Source of the DNA: Halorussus salilacus
GTDB lineage: Archaea > Halobacteriota > Halobacteria > Halobacteriales > Haladaptataceae
Reading direction: 5' to 3'
DNA length: 64,000 bases
Assembly: GCF_024138125.1 (NCBI RefSeq)
Contig: NZ_CP099993.1
Span: 1,984,001 to 2,048,000, forward strand
A model generated the notes under the pieces. The model was given only the letters and a program-made list of their open reading frames with translations. It searched no databases and was not told the DNA's origin. Shown in pieces: positions 33,968 to 60,908 of this stretch. The translations under genes were made by a program, and so were the position numbers. Numbering within the stretch: position 1 is the stretch's first letter; the number at the start of each line of letters is the position of its first letter.

Positions 33968-34104
33968 TCCTACTCTCCAAATCCCGCTCCCGGCAAAAAA
34001 CCGTATCGTTCGTGGGATAACGGTTGGCAAGGGGTGACGGGGGTTCGGGCGGCGCTTGTGGGCTCGCAGGCCCGGTCACGCGGTGTTCTCGGGGCAAACT
34101 TTGA

Positions 34105-34131
34105 TACACAACTGGAACGATTGTGTACACA
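34105..34131 (+). promoter_or_regulatory. Operator candidate upstream of the UPF0175/PIN pair
   Basis: TACACAA (34105-34111) and TTGTGTA (34121-34127) form a spaced inverted repeat, and TGTGTACACA (34122-34131) is itself palindromic and touches the ATG. This layout fits autorepression by the ribbon-helix-helix-like antitoxin. The same TACACA/TGTGTA pair is found before the HTH/PIN-like operon at 54808. Confidence 0.5.
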
Positions 34132-34442
34132 TGAGTCAGAAGCACGTGACCACCCGCGTCTCCGAGGACCTGTACGAGAAGATAGAGCGTATCCGCGAGG
34201 AGGAACAGACCGACCGCTCGACGGCTATCAAGCGACTGCTCGAACGCGGCGTCGGCGATTGGCAGGTCGAGACTGCCGTCCAGCGGTACCGAGACGGGGA
34301 CGTTTCCGTCGGCCGCGCGGCGGAGTTGGCCGACCTCTCGGTGTGGCGTTTTCTCGACGTTCTGGAGGAACGAGGCGTCGAGATGAACTACGACGAGACG
34401 GACCTCGAAGCCGACATCGCGGCGGTACGCGACGATGAGTGA
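34131..34442 (+). CDS. UPF0175-type antitoxin
   Basis: 103 residues. An N-terminal ribbon-helix-helix-like segment (HVTTRVSEDLYEKIERIREEEQTDRSTAIKRLLERGV) is followed by the UPF0175 block ETAVQRYRDGDVSVGRAAELADLSVWRFLDVLEERGVEMNY. UPF0175 proteins are regarded as antitoxins of DUF3368 PIN partners, and exactly such a gene overlaps it by 8 bp. The N-terminal RHH gives a likely DNA-binding, autorepressing form. Confidence 0.82.
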   Translation: MSQKHVTTRVSEDLYEKIERIREEEQTDRSTAIKRLLERGVGDWQVETAVQRYRDGDVSVGRAAELADLSVWRFLDVLEERGVEMNYDETDLEADIAAVRDDE

Positions 34443-34959
34443 GGCCGTCGTCACCGATGCGACGGTCCTCATCTATCTCGCCAAACTCGGGGACCTCTCC
34501 TTTTTGGACGAACTGTTCGACGACACGTACGTTTCCGACCGTGTCTACGAGGAAGTCGTTACTCGCGGCAGGGCGGAGCAGTACGCCGACGCGCTCCCGG
34601 TCGAGGAAGCGGTCGAGAACTTCCTCGACGTGCGGAGCCTCTCGACGGAATTGACCGAGCGCGTAGACGAAATCCAGCGGTCGGCCGGTCTCGAACGCGG
34701 CGAATGCACGGCCATCGCGTTGGCAGAGGCCGGGGATGCACGCTGTCTCACCGACGACCACGCCGCACGCACGACCGCCGAATCGCTCGGCGTCGCGGTC
34801 GGTGGCACGATTTACGTCTATCTGGAGTCGCTCGACCGCGGTCGCATCTCGTACGAGGAGTACGTCGATACACTCGACGACCTCACGGACAACGGGTTCC
34901 GGATGAGCGCGAGTCTGTATCGGCGCGCGGTCGATGCGGGCGAGGAACTCACGGACTGA
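34435..34959 (+). CDS. DUF3368-type PIN-domain toxin
   Basis: 174 residues. PIN acidic residues: VVTDATVLIYLAKLG (Asp 8), VYEEVVTRG (Glu near 39), ERGECTAIALAEAG (Glu near 89) and CLTDDHAARTTA (Asp near 106-107). The GE-C-TAIALA block is typical of DUF3368. The expected activity is Mg-dependent RNase. The 8-bp overlap with the UPF0175 gene indicates coupled translation. Confidence 0.82.
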   Translation: MSEAVVTDATVLIYLAKLGDLSFLDELFDDTYVSDRVYEEVVTRGRAEQYADALPVEEAVENFLDVRSLSTELTERVDEIQRSAGLERGECTAIALAEAGDARCLTDDHAARTTAESLGVAVGGTIYVYLESLDRGRISYEEYVDTLDDLTDNGFRMSASLYRRAVDAGEELTD

Positions 34960-37706: not shown

Positions 37707-39737
37707 ATGACGTGGCGTGACGCCGAACGGGCGTACGACGACGAGGTCATCGGACGGTCCACGCTGTCGCGCATGTTCGAGGAGAGCGCGGCACGGCACG
37801 CGAACCGCCCGGCACAGCAGTACAAGGGCGGCGTCTACGACCGGTCGCTGGTGGGGAGCGCGCTCGCGGCCGCTCCCGACGGCGAGTTCCGGGCCATCTC
37901 CTACGCCGAGATGCGCGATGTCGTCCGGTCGCTCGCCGCCGGATTCCGCGACCTCGGCGTCGGGGCCGACGACCGGGTGGGAATCTTCTCGGCGACCCGG
38001 ATGGAGTGGGCCCAGTGCGACTTCGGCCTGCTGGCGGCGGGCGCAATCGTGACCACGGTCTACCGGGGCTCGTCGCCGAACCAGGTCGCACACCTGCTGG
38101 GCGACCCCGACGCCTCGGGCGTCGTGGTGGAGAACGCCGACCTGCTGGAGCGGGTGGTCCGAGTGCAGGACTCGCTCGACCTCGAGTTCGCGGTCCTGAT
38201 GGACGACCCCGGCGACGGCGTCGAGTCGGGAGCGGGCGACGGCGGCGGGTCAGAGGCGGGCGACGGCGTCGCGTCCGAGGGGGCGGCCGCCCCCTCGGAC
38301 GCGGAATTCGACGTGTACACCCTCGGCGAGGTGTACGAGCGCGGCGCGGCGGCGTTCGACGAGACCGAATACGAGTCGTGGCTCGACGCTCGGGACCCCG
38401 AGGACCTCGCGACGCTCATCTACACCTCCGGGACGACCGGCACGCCGAAGGGCGTCCGGCTCAGTCACTGGAACTTCCGGTCGAACGTCAATCAGTGTCG
38501 GCGGCGGTTCGGTCCCCGCCCCGACAAGGGCGACCTGCCGGTCATCGACGAGGGCTCCAGCACCGTCTCGTTCCTGCCGCTGGCCCACGTCTTCGAGCGA
38601 CTCGCGGGCCACTTCCTCATGTTCGCCAGCGGCGCGACGGTCGCCTACGCCGAGAACCCCGAGACCCTCCGCGAGGACTTTCAGGCTATCGGGCCGACCA
38701 CCGGAACGAGCGTCCCGCGGGTGTACGAGCGGATGTACGACGCCATCCGCGAGCAGGCCGAGTCGTCGGCGGTCGGCGAGCGACTGTTCTCGTGGGCGAC
38801 CGACGTGGGACGGCGGTACTTCGAGGCCGACTCGCCCGGCCCGGCCCTGCGCGCCCAGCGCGCGGTCGCCGACAGACTCGTGTTCCGGAAGGTCAGGAAC
38901 GGTCTCGGCGGCAACGTCGATTTCCTCATCAGCGGCGGCGGGAGCCTCTCGCCCGACCTCTGTGCGCTGTACCACGGCATGGGCCTGCCGATTCTGGAGG
39001 GGTACGGCCTGACCGAGACCTCGCCGGTCATCGCGGTCAATCCGCCCGAGGAGCCGAAGGTCGGTACCATCGGCCCGCCGGTCGCCGACGTGGAGGTCCG
39101 GGTCGACGACTCGATGGTGGGCGAGGAGTTCGCAGACGCCGAGGGCGAGGTCGGCGAACTCCTCGTGAAGGGGCCGAACGTCACCGACGGCTACTGGGAA
39201 CTCCCCGAGGCGACCGAGCAGGCGTTCACCGAGGAGGGTTGGTTCCGGACCGGCGACATCGTCGAGATTCGCCCCGACGACTACGTCGCGTTCCGCGAGC
39301 GAGCCAAGGGAATCCTCGTGCTCTCGACCGGCAAGAACGTCGCCCCCGGACCCATCGAGGACGCGTTCGCCGCGAGCGAACTGGTCGAGCAGTGCATGGT
39401 GGTCGGCGACGGCCAGAAGTTCGTCTCCGCCATCCTCGTGCCGAACTTCGAGGCGGTCCGCAAGCGCGCCGACACCGAGGGCGTCGACCTGCCCGACGAC
39501 CCCGAGGACCTCGTCGGCGACGACCGGGTGAAGGCGTGGCTCGACGAGGAGGTCGAGTCGGTCAACGAGCGGTTCGAGTCCCACGAGCAGATAAAGCAGT
39601 ACCGGCTCGTCCCCGAGGAGTTCACCGAGGACAACGACCTGCTGACCCCGACGATGAAGAAGAAGCGCCGGAACATCCTGGAGCGGTTCGCCGACGAGAT
39701 AGACGAGATATACGCGGCCCAGTACGGAGACGCCTGA
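37707..39737 (+). CDS. AMP-dependent long-chain acyl-CoA synthetase
   Basis: 676 residues. Adenylation motifs: YTSGTTGTPKGVRLSHWN near 239-256, GYGLTETSPV near 432-441 and EGWFRTGDIVEI near 511-522; the catalytic Lys lies in the last domain (LTPTMKKKRRNILERF). It activates fatty acids to acyl-CoA. A Gly/Ser/Glu-rich insert near 170-200 (SGAGDGGGSEAGDG) is a non-conserved linker. A TTAATATCG at 37678 may include its promoter. Directly downstream lies the AT-rich leader of the halocin-like gene. Confidence 0.9.
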   Translation: MTWRDAERAYDDEVIGRSTLSRMFEESAARHANRPAQQYKGGVYDRSLVGSALAAAPDGEFRAISYAEMRDVVRSLAAGFRDLGVGADDRVGIFSATRMEWAQCDFGLLAAGAIVTTVYRGSSPNQVAHLLGDPDASGVVVENADLLERVVRVQDSLDLEFAVLMDDPGDGVESGAGDGGGSEAGDGVASEGAAAPSDAEFDVYTLGEVYERGAAAFDETEYESWLDARDPEDLATLIYTSGTTGTPKGVRLSHWNFRSNVNQCRRRFGPRPDKGDLPVIDEGSSTVSFLPLAHVFERLAGHFLMFASGATVAYAENPETLREDFQAIGPTTGTSVPRVYERMYDAIREQAESSAVGERLFSWATDVGRRYFEADSPGPALRAQRAVADRLVFRKVRNGLGGNVDFLISGGGSLSPDLCALYHGMGLPILEGYGLTETSPVIAVNPPEEPKVGTIGPPVADVEVRVDDSMVGEEFADAEGEVGELLVKGPNVTDGYWELPEATEQAFTEEGWFRTGDIVEIRPDDYVAFRERAKGILVLSTGKNVAPGPIEDAFAASELVEQCMVVGDGQKFVSAILVPNFEAVRKRADTEGVDLPDDPEDLVGDDRVKAWLDEEVESVNERFESHEQIKQYRLVPEEFTEDNDLLTPTMKKKRRNILERFADEIDEIYAAQYGDA

Positions 39738-39897: not shown

Positions 39898-39948
39898 GGT
39901 AGTAGCAGATACTAAAATTTATCTAACAGTAATTTATTTTGTTACTTG

Positions 39949-40818
39949 ATGGCTCCTGATAAACCCAATCGTCGTGACGTGCTGAAAGGTGTGAGCGGTG
40001 CCGGAATCGCTGGCGTGGCCGGGATGTTCTCCGTCTCGGTCGCCGCTGCGGAGGGCCCCGAGGACGAGCCCATCACGATGCTGGAGAAGGGTCGGAAGAT
40101 GGCGCTCGCTCGACAGCTCTCGAAGACCGAGCAGTTCGAGACCCTCCTCGAAACGGCGAACGAGAGGGGCTACGAGTTCTCTTGGGACCTCGACGACCTC
40201 GACGCCGCGCGGGTCGAGGCCGGGGAGTTCCGGCGGGAACTCGTGGCGTACAACTTCGACACCGAGGGCGACCACCGCGCGGCCATCGTCATCGGCCGCG
40301 ACCTCGACACCGACGAGGTCGAACTCGCGCAGATGGACTTCGAGTACTACCGGAGCGACGGCGTGCTCGACCGGACCGAGCGGTACGAGGCGGCGACCGA
40401 CGTCGAGACGACTCAGCTCGGCCGGACCACCCCCGACTCGGGCGTCCGCCGTCGGACCATCGAACCCGACCCCGACGCGATCACCGCCTTCGTCGACCGA
40501 GACGCCGGTACCGCTGGCTGGACCGACTTCCCGGACTACCTGAACATCAGCTACTGTAGCGGCTGTTACTGGGCGACCAACAGGACGTGTCGGCTCCTCT
40601 GTAGCACCGTCGGCGCGTTCGCGTGCGGTGCCCTCGGTGTCACCGTCGTCGGTGCGGTCTCGTGTGTCACCTTCGTCAAGGCCGTCTGCTACGTCGCCAA
40701 CTACACGAGCGGCTGCGGTGACGACCTCGGCGCGACGATCTGCAAGCATCCCGTGGTCGACGTCTGCGACGACGACGAGTCCGGCGACATCATCGACGTC
40801 GACATCCCGTACTTCTGA
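39949..40818 (+). CDS. Halocin C8-like precursor (Tat signal, immunity-like propart, Cys-rich peptide)
   Basis: 289 residues from ATG 39949 (MAPDKPNRRDVLKGVSGAG); a TTG one codon earlier is an alternative. Residues 1-33 are a twin-arginine signal. Residues about 34-195 are an acidic propart. From about 203 comes a hydrophobic Cys-rich segment with ten Cys spaced 2-7-3-7-12-7-8-8-7 residues apart and an YTSGCGDD block. From memory, mature halocin C8 has ten Cys spaced 2-7-3-7-13-7-8-8-5 and an EYSGCGDA block, so the match is close. Unlike C8, a 16-residue acidic tail (DDDESGDIIDVDIPYF) follows the last Cys. In C8 the propart (HalI) gives self-immunity. Strong family call; activity untested. 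Confidence 0.88.
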   Translation: MAPDKPNRRDVLKGVSGAGIAGVAGMFSVSVAAAEGPEDEPITMLEKGRKMALARQLSKTEQFETLLETANERGYEFSWDLDDLDAARVEAGEFRRELVAYNFDTEGDHRAAIVIGRDLDTDEVELAQMDFEYYRSDGVLDRTERYEAATDVETTQLGRTTPDSGVRRRTIEPDPDAITAFVDRDAGTAGWTDFPDYLNISYCSGCYWATNRTCRLLCSTVGAFACGALGVTVVGAVSCVTFVKAVCYVANYTSGCGDDLGATICKHPVVDVCDDDESGDIIDVDIPYF

Positions 40819-40857: not shown

Positions 40858-41583
40858 CTACGAGATCGCGATCAGTGCGACCCCGAGGACACAGAAGACG
40901 AGCGCGACGGCGAGCGGAAGCGCGGCGGCCCGAAGCCGACGTCCGACGACCGCTCGCGGCGACCGGTCGGTTATCACGAGCGCTCCCGTGAGGACCGTTC
41001 GGCCGTCGGTCCGCTCGGGACGCCCCGCGATTACGTGGGGTTCGTCGAGGTCGATGCGCCGCTCGACGTACCGGCGAGTGCCGATACCGAGGACCGAGAG
41101 CGGTCCCGCCGACGCGGGCCCGACCCCCTCGCGCACCGCGAGGAACGATTCGATGCGCTCGGGCGGCCGTTCGCCCGCGGGCACGACGACGGTCTCGGGC
41201 TCCGTATCGAGCGCGAACCGCCGCGATTCGGGCTCGACGCGGACGCGGTCGCTGTCACCGCGCAACTCGAAGGGGACCGTGGCGACCCCGTCGTCGAGGT
41301 CCCGCCATGTGAACGGGACCTCGGACGGCGTGAGCGCCCGCTCGGCGATCTCGTACTCGACGCCCAGACAGGGCTCGCCCGTGAACGGCCCGTCGAGCGA
41401 CTCGCCGACCGATTCGGCCCGACCGCGACAGACCACGAACCCCGAGTCGGCGGACACCTCCGCGGGAGCGACGACCTCCGACCGCAGGAGACGCGGGAGC
41501 ACGGCGAGCGGCCTGAGGGCGTACCAGCCGAACCCGAGGCCCGAGACGACGAGAACGACGCCCAGCACCACGATTGTTGCCAT
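40858..41583 (-). CDS. GIDE-domain membrane protein
   Basis: 241 residues with an N-terminal membrane helix (about 2-24) and a C-terminal one (about 220-240). The middle resembles the GIDE/BAM domain of mitochondrial MUL1 E3 ligases: VVCRGRAESVGESLDGPFTGEPCLGVEYEI then VPFELRGDSDRVRVEP. No RING finger follows, as is usual in prokaryotic GIDE proteins, so no ligase activity should be assumed. It ends 39 bp beyond the halocin-like gene, convergent with it. Confidence 0.75.
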   Translation of the reverse strand: MATIVVLGVVLVVSGLGFGWYALRPLAVLPRLLRSEVVAPAEVSADSGFVVCRGRAESVGESLDGPFTGEPCLGVEYEIAERALTPSEVPFTWRDLDDGVATVPFELRGDSDRVRVEPESRRFALDTEPETVVVPAGERPPERIESFLAVREGVGPASAGPLSVLGIGTRRYVERRIDLDEPHVIAGRPERTDGRTVLTGALVITDRSPRAVVGRRLRAAALPLAVALVFCVLGVALIAIS

Positions 41584-58912: not shown

Positions 58913-58964
58913 TTAGGTCTATTGAGGGTAGTTCTTTTATTTGTTGAAGAGCAACTTATCCATA

Positions 58965-60908
58965 ATGAAAAACTGTGCAATCTGCGGCAAACCTACGAAG
59001 AGCCATGTGGAACATGAAACGGCAATTTGCCACTCCTGTTATCAGGAACATCCTGCAAAAGCGCGAAGTATGCTAGCTCAAGCAAAAGGTGAAGAGGAAG
59101 AAAATGAGGATATACTTGATTCAGTTCCTACAATGGAAACGGATAATGCATTCTATGCAGATATCTCAGAATATTTTTCTTCGGTAGAACCTACAGACAT
59201 TGACGGACCTAATGTCGAAGAACTAATCGATGAACTGCTAGCTCTACTTTCAGAATCTGATACAAAGAAGTTAGTCGTTTCTCTCATGGAGAACTATGTC
59301 GGGTCTGCAATGATTTCTGATGATCCAGATTTTCAAGGTGATACTGTTGGAATTCCACCTAAAATGATTGAGTATCTATTAGGCCTAATTTCTACGACCG
59401 ATGTATCTTCAAATGGGGAAATAGAATATGAAGAAATACAGGACAAATCGGAAGAGCTCATCTTCGCCTATCTTTTTAGAGACTTTCCTTCCTCACCGAA
59501 AGACCTATCCGAAACAGAAAGAACGAAACAAACATTAAAACATCAACTATTAGGTCGTGAGTTAGCTTCAGGAAGATTCGTCTATGCCGGTCAATATCTT
59601 GAAGCTGCGAAAAGAGCGTATTCACCACACAATCGAATATTCCAACAAGAATTAGGATTCACAATTGACGACGCTATCCGTTTTTCAAGAGAACTTATAA
59701 AGATATTCTCTATGAGAGTGAAAAGTATGATGGAGCAAATGGCAGAGTTTTCAAAAAAGGCAAGAATCGGACATGGCCAATTTCTGTTATTCTTAGAAGA
59801 ACACGGTGAGGACGAAGAAGCCATTTCTAACTATTGGAACTCAGAGCAGTTCAGGGAATCCCAAGAAATAGTCGGTAGATCATATGAAAAGTATCTAGCA
59901 AGAAGGCGAGAATTATGGATTAGTGAGGAAAAGCTGTCAGAACATTTCCAGAGCGAAGAATTTGACTGCTTCTTAAATCGGATGACAACCACAATCGGTG
60001 CTCAGAAAGACTTCCGATATCCATACAAGCATAATCCCATCCATGAAAGTCCAATTTTAGAGACTGACGGTGAATATATCATCCCTCATTTCAAGGCGTT
60101 TTACCGGGCAATAGCAGAAACCTTCTACTACGACTTGCGAAATATTGATGATTACGAATTTGGTAATGAATGGGGAGAGTATGTGGAAGAGTGGGCATAT
60201 GAGAGCATCCAGAGGCTCTTCCCTGAGTCAGAGGTTCTTCTAAATCCTAAATACGAAATTAATGGGGAAGACGGTGAGTCAGATATAGTTGTTTTCCATA
60301 AGAATAAATGCTTAGTAATAGAGTGCAAAACTCAAGGACTAACTCTGCCAACAAGAGCGGGTGATTATGAAGAAACCAGGAAAAACGTCATGAGAGGTAT
60401 CGGTAATGCACGGGATCAAGCAACAAAACTAATCGAGGGTATTAAAAACAATACTGTAACTGAATTCCAAGTCTCTGGGGAGGAAACTAGGATATCACCT
60501 GGAAAATATGATGAATTTGAATCCATGGTGATTCTCAGAGAACAATATGACTGGATTGCGACAACAGAATATAACCGGATTACCGACTTTGAAGACAATA
60601 TACCCTATGTACTAAGTGTATACGATCTTCAAGTAATTTCCGAGTGCTTTAAATCTCCGGATGATTTCTTCCAGTTCGTTTCAAAAAGAGTAAGATTACT
60701 TGAAGGTCAGACACTAGCTAGCCCCGACGAATTAGACTATGTTGGTGCTTACTTGAGTAATGGTCTTGAGGTAGTTCGTTTCGCTGATGATGACGATATC
60801 CGTGTATTCACAGACAGCTTTGCTCACGAAGTCTATCAGATTGTCGGTGACCGGTTCTACCCGGATGAACTGAAAGTAGAACTCAATCCAGATGGAAATG
60901 GTTTATAA
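58965..60908 (+). CDS. AT-rich zinc-finger protein with PD-(D/E)XK nuclease-like end; defence candidate
   Basis: 647 residues from ATG 58965 (MKNCAICGKPTKSHVEHETAICHSCYQEH). The N-terminus has a C-x2-C...C-x2-C zinc knuckle, followed by an acidic linker and a long helical middle (about 60-420). Near 440-475, GESDIVVFHKNKCLVIECKTQG gives the D...E-x-K set of PD-(D/E)XK nucleases. GC is only about 40 percent, against about two thirds next door, with AT-rich codon choice throughout, so it is a recent acquisition. No methylase or helicase partner is adjacent. Function unknown; a solitary restriction-type or abortive-infection nuclease is the best guess. Confidence 0.7.
   Translation: MKNCAICGKPTKSHVEHETAICHSCYQEHPAKARSMLAQAKGEEEENEDILDSVPTMETDNAFYADISEYFSSVEPTDIDGPNVEELIDELLALLSESDTKKLVVSLMENYVGSAMISDDPDFQGDTVGIPPKMIEYLLGLISTTDVSSNGEIEYEEIQDKSEELIFAYLFRDFPSSPKDLSETERTKQTLKHQLLGRELASGRFVYAGQYLEAAKRAYSPHNRIFQQELGFTIDDAIRFSRELIKIFSMRVKSMMEQMAEFSKKARIGHGQFLLFLEEHGEDEEAISNYWNSEQFRESQEIVGRSYEKYLARRRELWISEEKLSEHFQSEEFDCFLNRMTTTIGAQKDFRYPYKHNPIHESPILETDGEYIIPHFKAFYRAIAETFYYDLRNIDDYEFGNEWGEYVEEWAYESIQRLFPESEVLLNPKYEINGEDGESDIVVFHKNKCLVIECKTQGLTLPTRAGDYEETRKNVMRGIGNARDQATKLIEGIKNNTVTEFQVSGEETRISPGKYDEFESMVILREQYDWIATTEYNRITDFEDNIPYVLSVYDLQVISECFKSPDDFFQFVSKRVRLLEGQTLASPDELDYVGAYLSNGLEVVRFADDDDIRVFTDSFAHEVYQIVGDRFYPDELKVELNPDGNGL

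What the first reader, a model, noticed from the sequence alone, without database searches (positions are those of the whole stretch)
39949..40818. New halocin C8-like bacteriocin precursor
Seen: Tat signal, acidic propart and a C-terminal segment with ten cysteines in nearly the same spacing as halocin C8, including the SGCGDD block. Known: in the C8 precursor, the propart is the immunity protein. Inferred: this is a divergent microhalocin with a new sequence. The 16-residue acidic tail after the last Cys and the lack of a nearby dedicated transporter differ from a simple C8 copy and raise the question of an additional C-terminal cut.
Basis: partly seen in the sequence, partly recalled or inferred. 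Interest (0 to 1): 0.72.

Follow-up and report, generated by a model that had tools for sequence, protein, structure and literature searches.

The report
Halocin C8 relative with conserved tail
This gene very probably encodes a secreted antimicrobial peptide precursor of the already known halocin C8 family of salt-loving archaea; it belongs to a separate branch of that family whose toxin segment carries an extra C-terminal tail that has been conserved across several families, so the tail probably matters for how the toxin is kept silent, released or aimed.

Summary
ORF 39949-40818 (+, 289 aa) has a twin-arginine signal, an acidic propart that matches Pfam's Hac8_like_N (E 1e-24) and a ten-cysteine C-terminal segment that matches NCBIfam's halocin_C8_dom (34.4 bits, cut-off 24). 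It is a member of the halocin C8 precursor family, not a new family; Halorussus C8-like genes were already reported. The tail is as conserved as the toxin core (mean pairwise identity 0.57 against 0.58; propart domain 0.40, linker 0.30). The gene is a monocistronic cassette with its own TATA-like box, at one conserved chromosomal site in five Halorussus species and absent from that site in a sixth. Whether the tail is cut off cannot be told from sequence. Outside Halorussus, tailed precursors are linked to a 68-aa two-TM protein, a candidate immunity partner. Antimicrobial activity is untested. The AlphaFold model was too poor to use.

The parts
39949..40818 (+). halocin C8-family precursor gene, 289 aa (tailed clade)
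39949..40056 (+). Tat signal peptide, residues 1-36 (RRDVLKG ... SVSVAAAEG); cleavage position inferred
   Evidence: sequence; TIGR01409 15.9 bits against cut-off 16.7
40093..40392 (+). Hac8_like_N domain (HalI-type propart), residues 49-148
   Evidence: PF22862 E 1.3e-24
40393..40533 (+). fast-evolving linker, residues 149-195, ending in the conserved D[LF]P just before the core (presumed cleavage region)
40534..40767 (+). ten-cysteine C8 core, residues 196-273
   Evidence: TIGR04449 E 3.3e-8; 42% identity to mature halocin C8 over 72 residues
40768..40815 (+). conserved C-terminal tail DDDESGDIIDVDIPYF, residues 274-289
39914..39928 (+). TATA-like box (AAATTTATCTAA region) about 25-33 nt before the ATG, conserved in five Halorussus species; suggests a leaderless transcript
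37707..39737 (+). upstream flank: acyl-CoA synthetase (AMP-binding), conserved border of the site
40858..41583 (-). downstream flank: 241-aa membrane protein of unknown family, common in haloarchaea, conserved border of the site (not halocin-specific)

Best explanation
A halocin C8-family precursor made from one gene. The protein folds in the cytoplasm, leaves by the Tat route, and is cut outside the cell in or near the D-F-P-D-Y stretch, giving an N-terminal HalI-like part that protects the producer and a C-terminal ten-cysteine peptide (78 residues plus a 16-residue tail, about 9.9 kDa) that attacks other haloarchaea. In this clade the toxin has a C-terminal tail made of a variable spacer and a conserved anchor IIxVDIPYF. 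I think the tail most likely works as a binding segment, either docking the toxin on its own HalI-like part before release or contacting the target, rather than as a throw-away end. Shown here: domain make-up, family membership, clade, selection on the tail, single-gene cassette. Inferred from halocin C8: export, cutting, killing, immunity. Inferred from conservation alone: the role of the tail.
For: Two family profiles over their cut-offs. The true halocin C8 precursor was recovered (L024, 283 aa; last 76 aa are the known mature length, PMC11509114) and the window's core is 42% identical to it. All 14 tailed rows form one branch side with support 100/98, tail columns left out of the tree. Tail identity between deep lineages 0.57 mean against 0.58 core, 0.40 N-domain, 0.30 linker. 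Low dN/dS in core (0.04-0.19) and mostly in tail among Halorussus species (the tail has only 16 codons). Own TATA-like box in an AT-rich stretch (25% G+C against 65%). Empty site in G015. Eight subtilases in the same genome could do the cutting.
Against: No activity, export or cleavage was or could be tested. The cleavage site is inferred by analogy. Strong purifying selection on the core and absence of diversifying selection are not typical of an arms race. The AlphaFold2 model (two sequences, mean pLDDT 38) is too weak to show docking of the tail.
Confidence: 0.62

Rival explanations
1. The tail is a follower that is removed by a second cut after or near the last cysteine, so the mature peptide ends like classical C8.
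For: Classical C8 members end at or within a few residues of the last Cys; the spacer after the last Cys is variable, an accessible place for a protease. From memory, halocin S8 is cut out of the interior of its precursor, so C-terminal removal has a precedent in halocins.
Against: No cleavage motif is visible; conservation sits at the far end of the tail (IIxVDIPYF), not at the presumed cut; a discarded end would need a function before its removal.
Confidence: 0.25
2. The precursor is secreted but its antagonistic part is set free only by extracellular serine proteases of the same or a neighbouring strain, as described for HFX_0892 of Haloferax mediterranei.
For: That mechanism is published (PMC12893001); the own genome has eight subtilase genes.
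Against: HFX_0892 was not shown here to be related to this gene; in it the active part is the N-terminus, not a cysteine-rich C-terminus.
Confidence: 0.2
3. The gene is a secreted protein with a C8-like fold that has a non-killing role (signal, structural or receptor-binding function).
For: Core under strong purifying selection and fixed chromosomal site in five Halorussus species, unlike many mobile bacteriocins; C8-like domains also occur in much longer proteins and in non-haloarchaeal members of the phylum.
Against: Full C8 architecture including the HalI-type propart; the sister branch contains the experimentally known C8; related tailed genes lie on megaplasmids and one is cut by an insertion element, as expected of a dispensable toxin.
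Confidence: 0.15

Closest known systems
Halocin C8 precursor ProC8/HalC8 (Sun et al. 2005; recovered here as L024)
   Same: Tat signal, Hac8_like_N propart, ten-Cys C-terminal domain with seven of nine gaps identical, single gene, sister branch in the family tree
   Different: 35% identity over the precursor, 42% over the core; C8 stops at the last Cys, this one adds a conserved 16-residue tail; last Cys gap 7 instead of 5
Plasmid-borne 'halocin C8-like domain-containing protein' of Haloferax larsenii NCIM 5678 (L075) and Halobacterium spp. (L076)
   Same: same tailed clade, tail ...GDII[ND]VDIPYI
   Different: 46 and 42% identity; followed within 25 nt by a 68-aa two-TM gene that the window's genome lacks
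Halorussus amylolyticus orthologue (L001)
   Same: 85% identity, same neighbours on both sides, same tail
   Different: nothing of note
HFX_0892/HapP protease-activated precursor (PMC12893001)
   Same: secreted haloarchaeal precursor with an antagonistic part
   Different: not shown to be homologous; active part at the N-terminus

Membership tests
Halocin C8 precursor family | C-terminal halocin_C8_dom (TIGR04449) over curated cut-off | tested here: met
   34.4 bits against 24
Halocin C8 precursor family | Hac8_like_N (PF22862) propart over gathering score | tested here: met
   87.3 bits against 27
Halocin C8 precursor family | Tat signal peptide | tested here: met
   RRDVLKG motif and hydrophobic stretch read directly; TIGR01409 profile just below cut-off, 15.9 against 16.7
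Halocin C8 precursor family | ten cysteines in C8 spacing | tested here: met
   2,7,3,7,12,7,8,8,7 against 2,7,3,7,13,7,8,8,5
Halocin C8 precursor family | protein ends at the last Cys (typical of C8 itself, not curated as defining) | tested here: not met
   16 further residues, conserved in the clade
Halocin C8 precursor family | propart gives immunity, C-terminal peptide kills | not testable with these tools
   needs expression and inhibition tests
Nif11-type leader peptides | PF07862 over gathering score | tested here: not met
   13.3 bits against 23.8, only two of nine rows match, and the better Nif11 hits in haloarchaea are unrelated proteins

The most novel reading that the evidence does not exclude
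The tailed clade is a functionally distinct class of C8-like halocins in which the IIxVDIPYF anchor is a docking tag that holds the toxin on its own HalI-like part or guides it to a target, with, in some lineages, a second dedicated immunity protein (the 68-aa two-TM partner).
Probability: 0.25. Interest if true: 0.6.

Novelty: new variant of a known kind. Interest (0 to 1): 0.38.

Why it matters
Halocin C8 is, according to a 2024 review (PMC11509114), the halocin best described at the molecular level, yet how its pro-form is kept silent and cut is not explained in the papers I could read. A clade with a conserved add-on motif gives a direct handle: delete or swap the tail and see whether silence, release, killing or immunity changes. 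Haloferax larsenii NCIM 5678, listed there as producer of halocin HA3, carries a tailed precursor, so a strain with a reported halocin is at hand to test.

Tried and rejected
Dedicated neighbour: the 241-aa membrane gene at 40858-41583 sits next to the halocin gene in all five tailed-cassette Halorussus species, but homologues occur in 233 of 392 genomes, most without halocins, so it is only the border of the site. Nif11-like leader: weak hit, rejected. Phage or viral origin: no match in phages or viral contigs. Defence-system membership: no PADLOC match. Solved structure: no significant relative. Original papers on C8 (Sun 2005, Mei 2008, Besse 2017) are mostly outside the held library (Mei 2008 was tried), so published statements come from reviews; whether the tail has been described there is unknown to me.

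Full report
OBSERVATION. The ORF at 39949-40818 (+) reads 289 aa from an ATG. It starts MAPDKPNRRDVLKG, continues with a hydrophobic stretch and VAAAEG, then an acidic propart (net charge -20 over residues 37-195), then a neutral ten-cysteine segment and an acidic tail DDDESGDIIDVDIPYF. Pfam's Hac8_like_N matches residues 49-148 with E 1.3e-24 and NCBIfam's halocin_C8_dom residues 203-269 with E 3.3e-8, over its curated cut-off.

FAMILY. A search of 392 haloarchaeal genomes finds the C8 domain in 53 and the Hac8_like_N domain in 26. One of them (L024) is the halocin C8 precursor itself: 283 aa, with DIDITGCSAC...NRAGLC as its last 76 residues, which are the lengths given for ProC8 and mature C8 in a review (PMC11509114). 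The window's core is 42% identical to that mature peptide over 72 residues, and seven of the nine cysteine gaps are the same. The same review says that C8-like genes had been reported in Halorussus, so the gene is a member of a known family in a genus where it was expected. That the window is Halorussus is inferred from the 85% orthologue with conserved neighbours in Halorussus amylolyticus.

THE TAIL. This is the part worth keeping. Where other C8-type rows end at the last Cys (a few carry up to five further residues), a set of precursors including the window, its Halorussus relatives and the plasmid genes L075 and L076 carry 16-20 residues: a variable spacer (DDDES, GPDAD, GPNES, GPNEKP) and a conserved end IIxVDIPYF (the most divergent are L056 with EVPLPNI, L073 with DVDIPQF and L045 with four extra residues). 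A maximum-likelihood tree built without the tail puts all 14 tailed rows on one side of a branch with support 100/98; one change of state explains the label. The clade spans four family codes of the order (f1, f5, f8, f13) plus Haloferax and Halobacterium megaplasmids. Between six deep lineages mean pairwise identity is 0.57 in the tail, 0.58 in the core, 0.40 in the N-domain and 0.30 in the linker. Among Halorussus species dN/dS is 0.04-0.19 in the core, 0.04-0.33 in the tail (only 16 codons, so rough) and up to 0.61 in the linker. So the tail has a function; sequence does not say whether it is retained. A variable spacer followed by a fixed anchor looks more like a tethered binding motif than a cleavage signal; this is inference.

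SETTING. In Halorussus the gene is a single-gene cassette between an acyl-CoA synthetase and a convergent 241-aa membrane gene in five species (own, G011, G013, G020, G024); in G015 the two border genes are only about 60 bases apart and the halocin is absent. The 89 bases before the start are 25% G+C against 65% for the window, and a TTTATnTAA-like box about 25-33 nt before the ATG is conserved in five species, which suggests a leaderless transcript of its own. No dedicated transporter is needed for a Tat substrate. The own genome holds a second, untailed C8-domain gene (C1:633978, L016/L120) and eight subtilase genes. No copy was found in phage or viral collections.

A PARTNER OUTSIDE HALORUSSUS. 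In Haloferax larsenii NCIM 5678 and Halobacterium plasmids the tailed gene is followed after 19-25 nt by a 68-aa protein with two membrane stretches (read by eye). Six of 392 genomes hold this protein; five of them also hold a tailed halocin (11 genomes do), within about 2.5 kb of it (Fisher p 4e-8, genomes not independent). The sixth, G248, keeps it at the same site between the same neighbours but without the halocin; in Halobacterium NRC-1 the halocin reading frame breaks off before its last three cysteines next to an ISH30 element while the 68-aa gene survives further on. Losing the toxin and keeping the small membrane protein is what one expects of an immunity gene. It is absent from the window's genome, so it is not needed in this branch.

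VERDICT. Ordinary in kind, with one point of real interest: a conserved C-terminal tail that defines a clade. Function as an antimicrobial is likely by family but untested. HA3 link: strain NCIM 5678 is listed as the producer of halocin HA3 with a reported 13 kDa (PMC11509114), while the tailed peptide would be about 9.5 kDa; identity is open.

Noticed in passing
L075:4953-5159; L076:4946-5152; L038; L056; L077:8004-8210; L119:6695-6907: 68-70-aa two-TM protein tied to tailed halocin genes outside Halorussus, kept where the halocin is lost (G248) or broken next to ISH30 (NRC-1 pNRC200): candidate dedicated immunity protein without any Pfam or NCBIfam match.
   Followed up: partly
L140:1166-1627 (G011:C2): Stand-alone HalI-like N-domain protein without Tat signal and without C8 domain, close in sequence to the propart of the precursor in L017: looks like an immunity-only relic or orphan.
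   Followed up: partly
L135, L136, L137, L138, L139: C8-like cysteine domains in genomes of the same phylum outside the order Halobacteriales (up to E 1.4e-16), several with secretion-like N-termini, two copies in one genome.
   Followed up: partly
L012, L019, L069, L074: Much longer proteins (about 670-700 aa frames) with a C8-like cysteine domain at the very C-terminus; some also score weakly with the Hac8_like_N model.
   Followed up: no
L120:6436-7194 (own genome C1:633978): Second, untailed C8-domain precursor in the same genome, with NADH dehydrogenase-like genes on one side and purE/purK-like genes on the other.
   Followed up: partly
34056-34959: UPF0175/ribbon-helix-helix gene followed by a PIN/DUF3368 gene with overlapping ends: probable toxin-antitoxin pair.
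   Followed up: no
58941-60908: Low-G+C (about 51-55%) 655-aa gene in a 65% G+C window, ending in a nuclease-like segment by eye; looks recently acquired.
   Followed up: no
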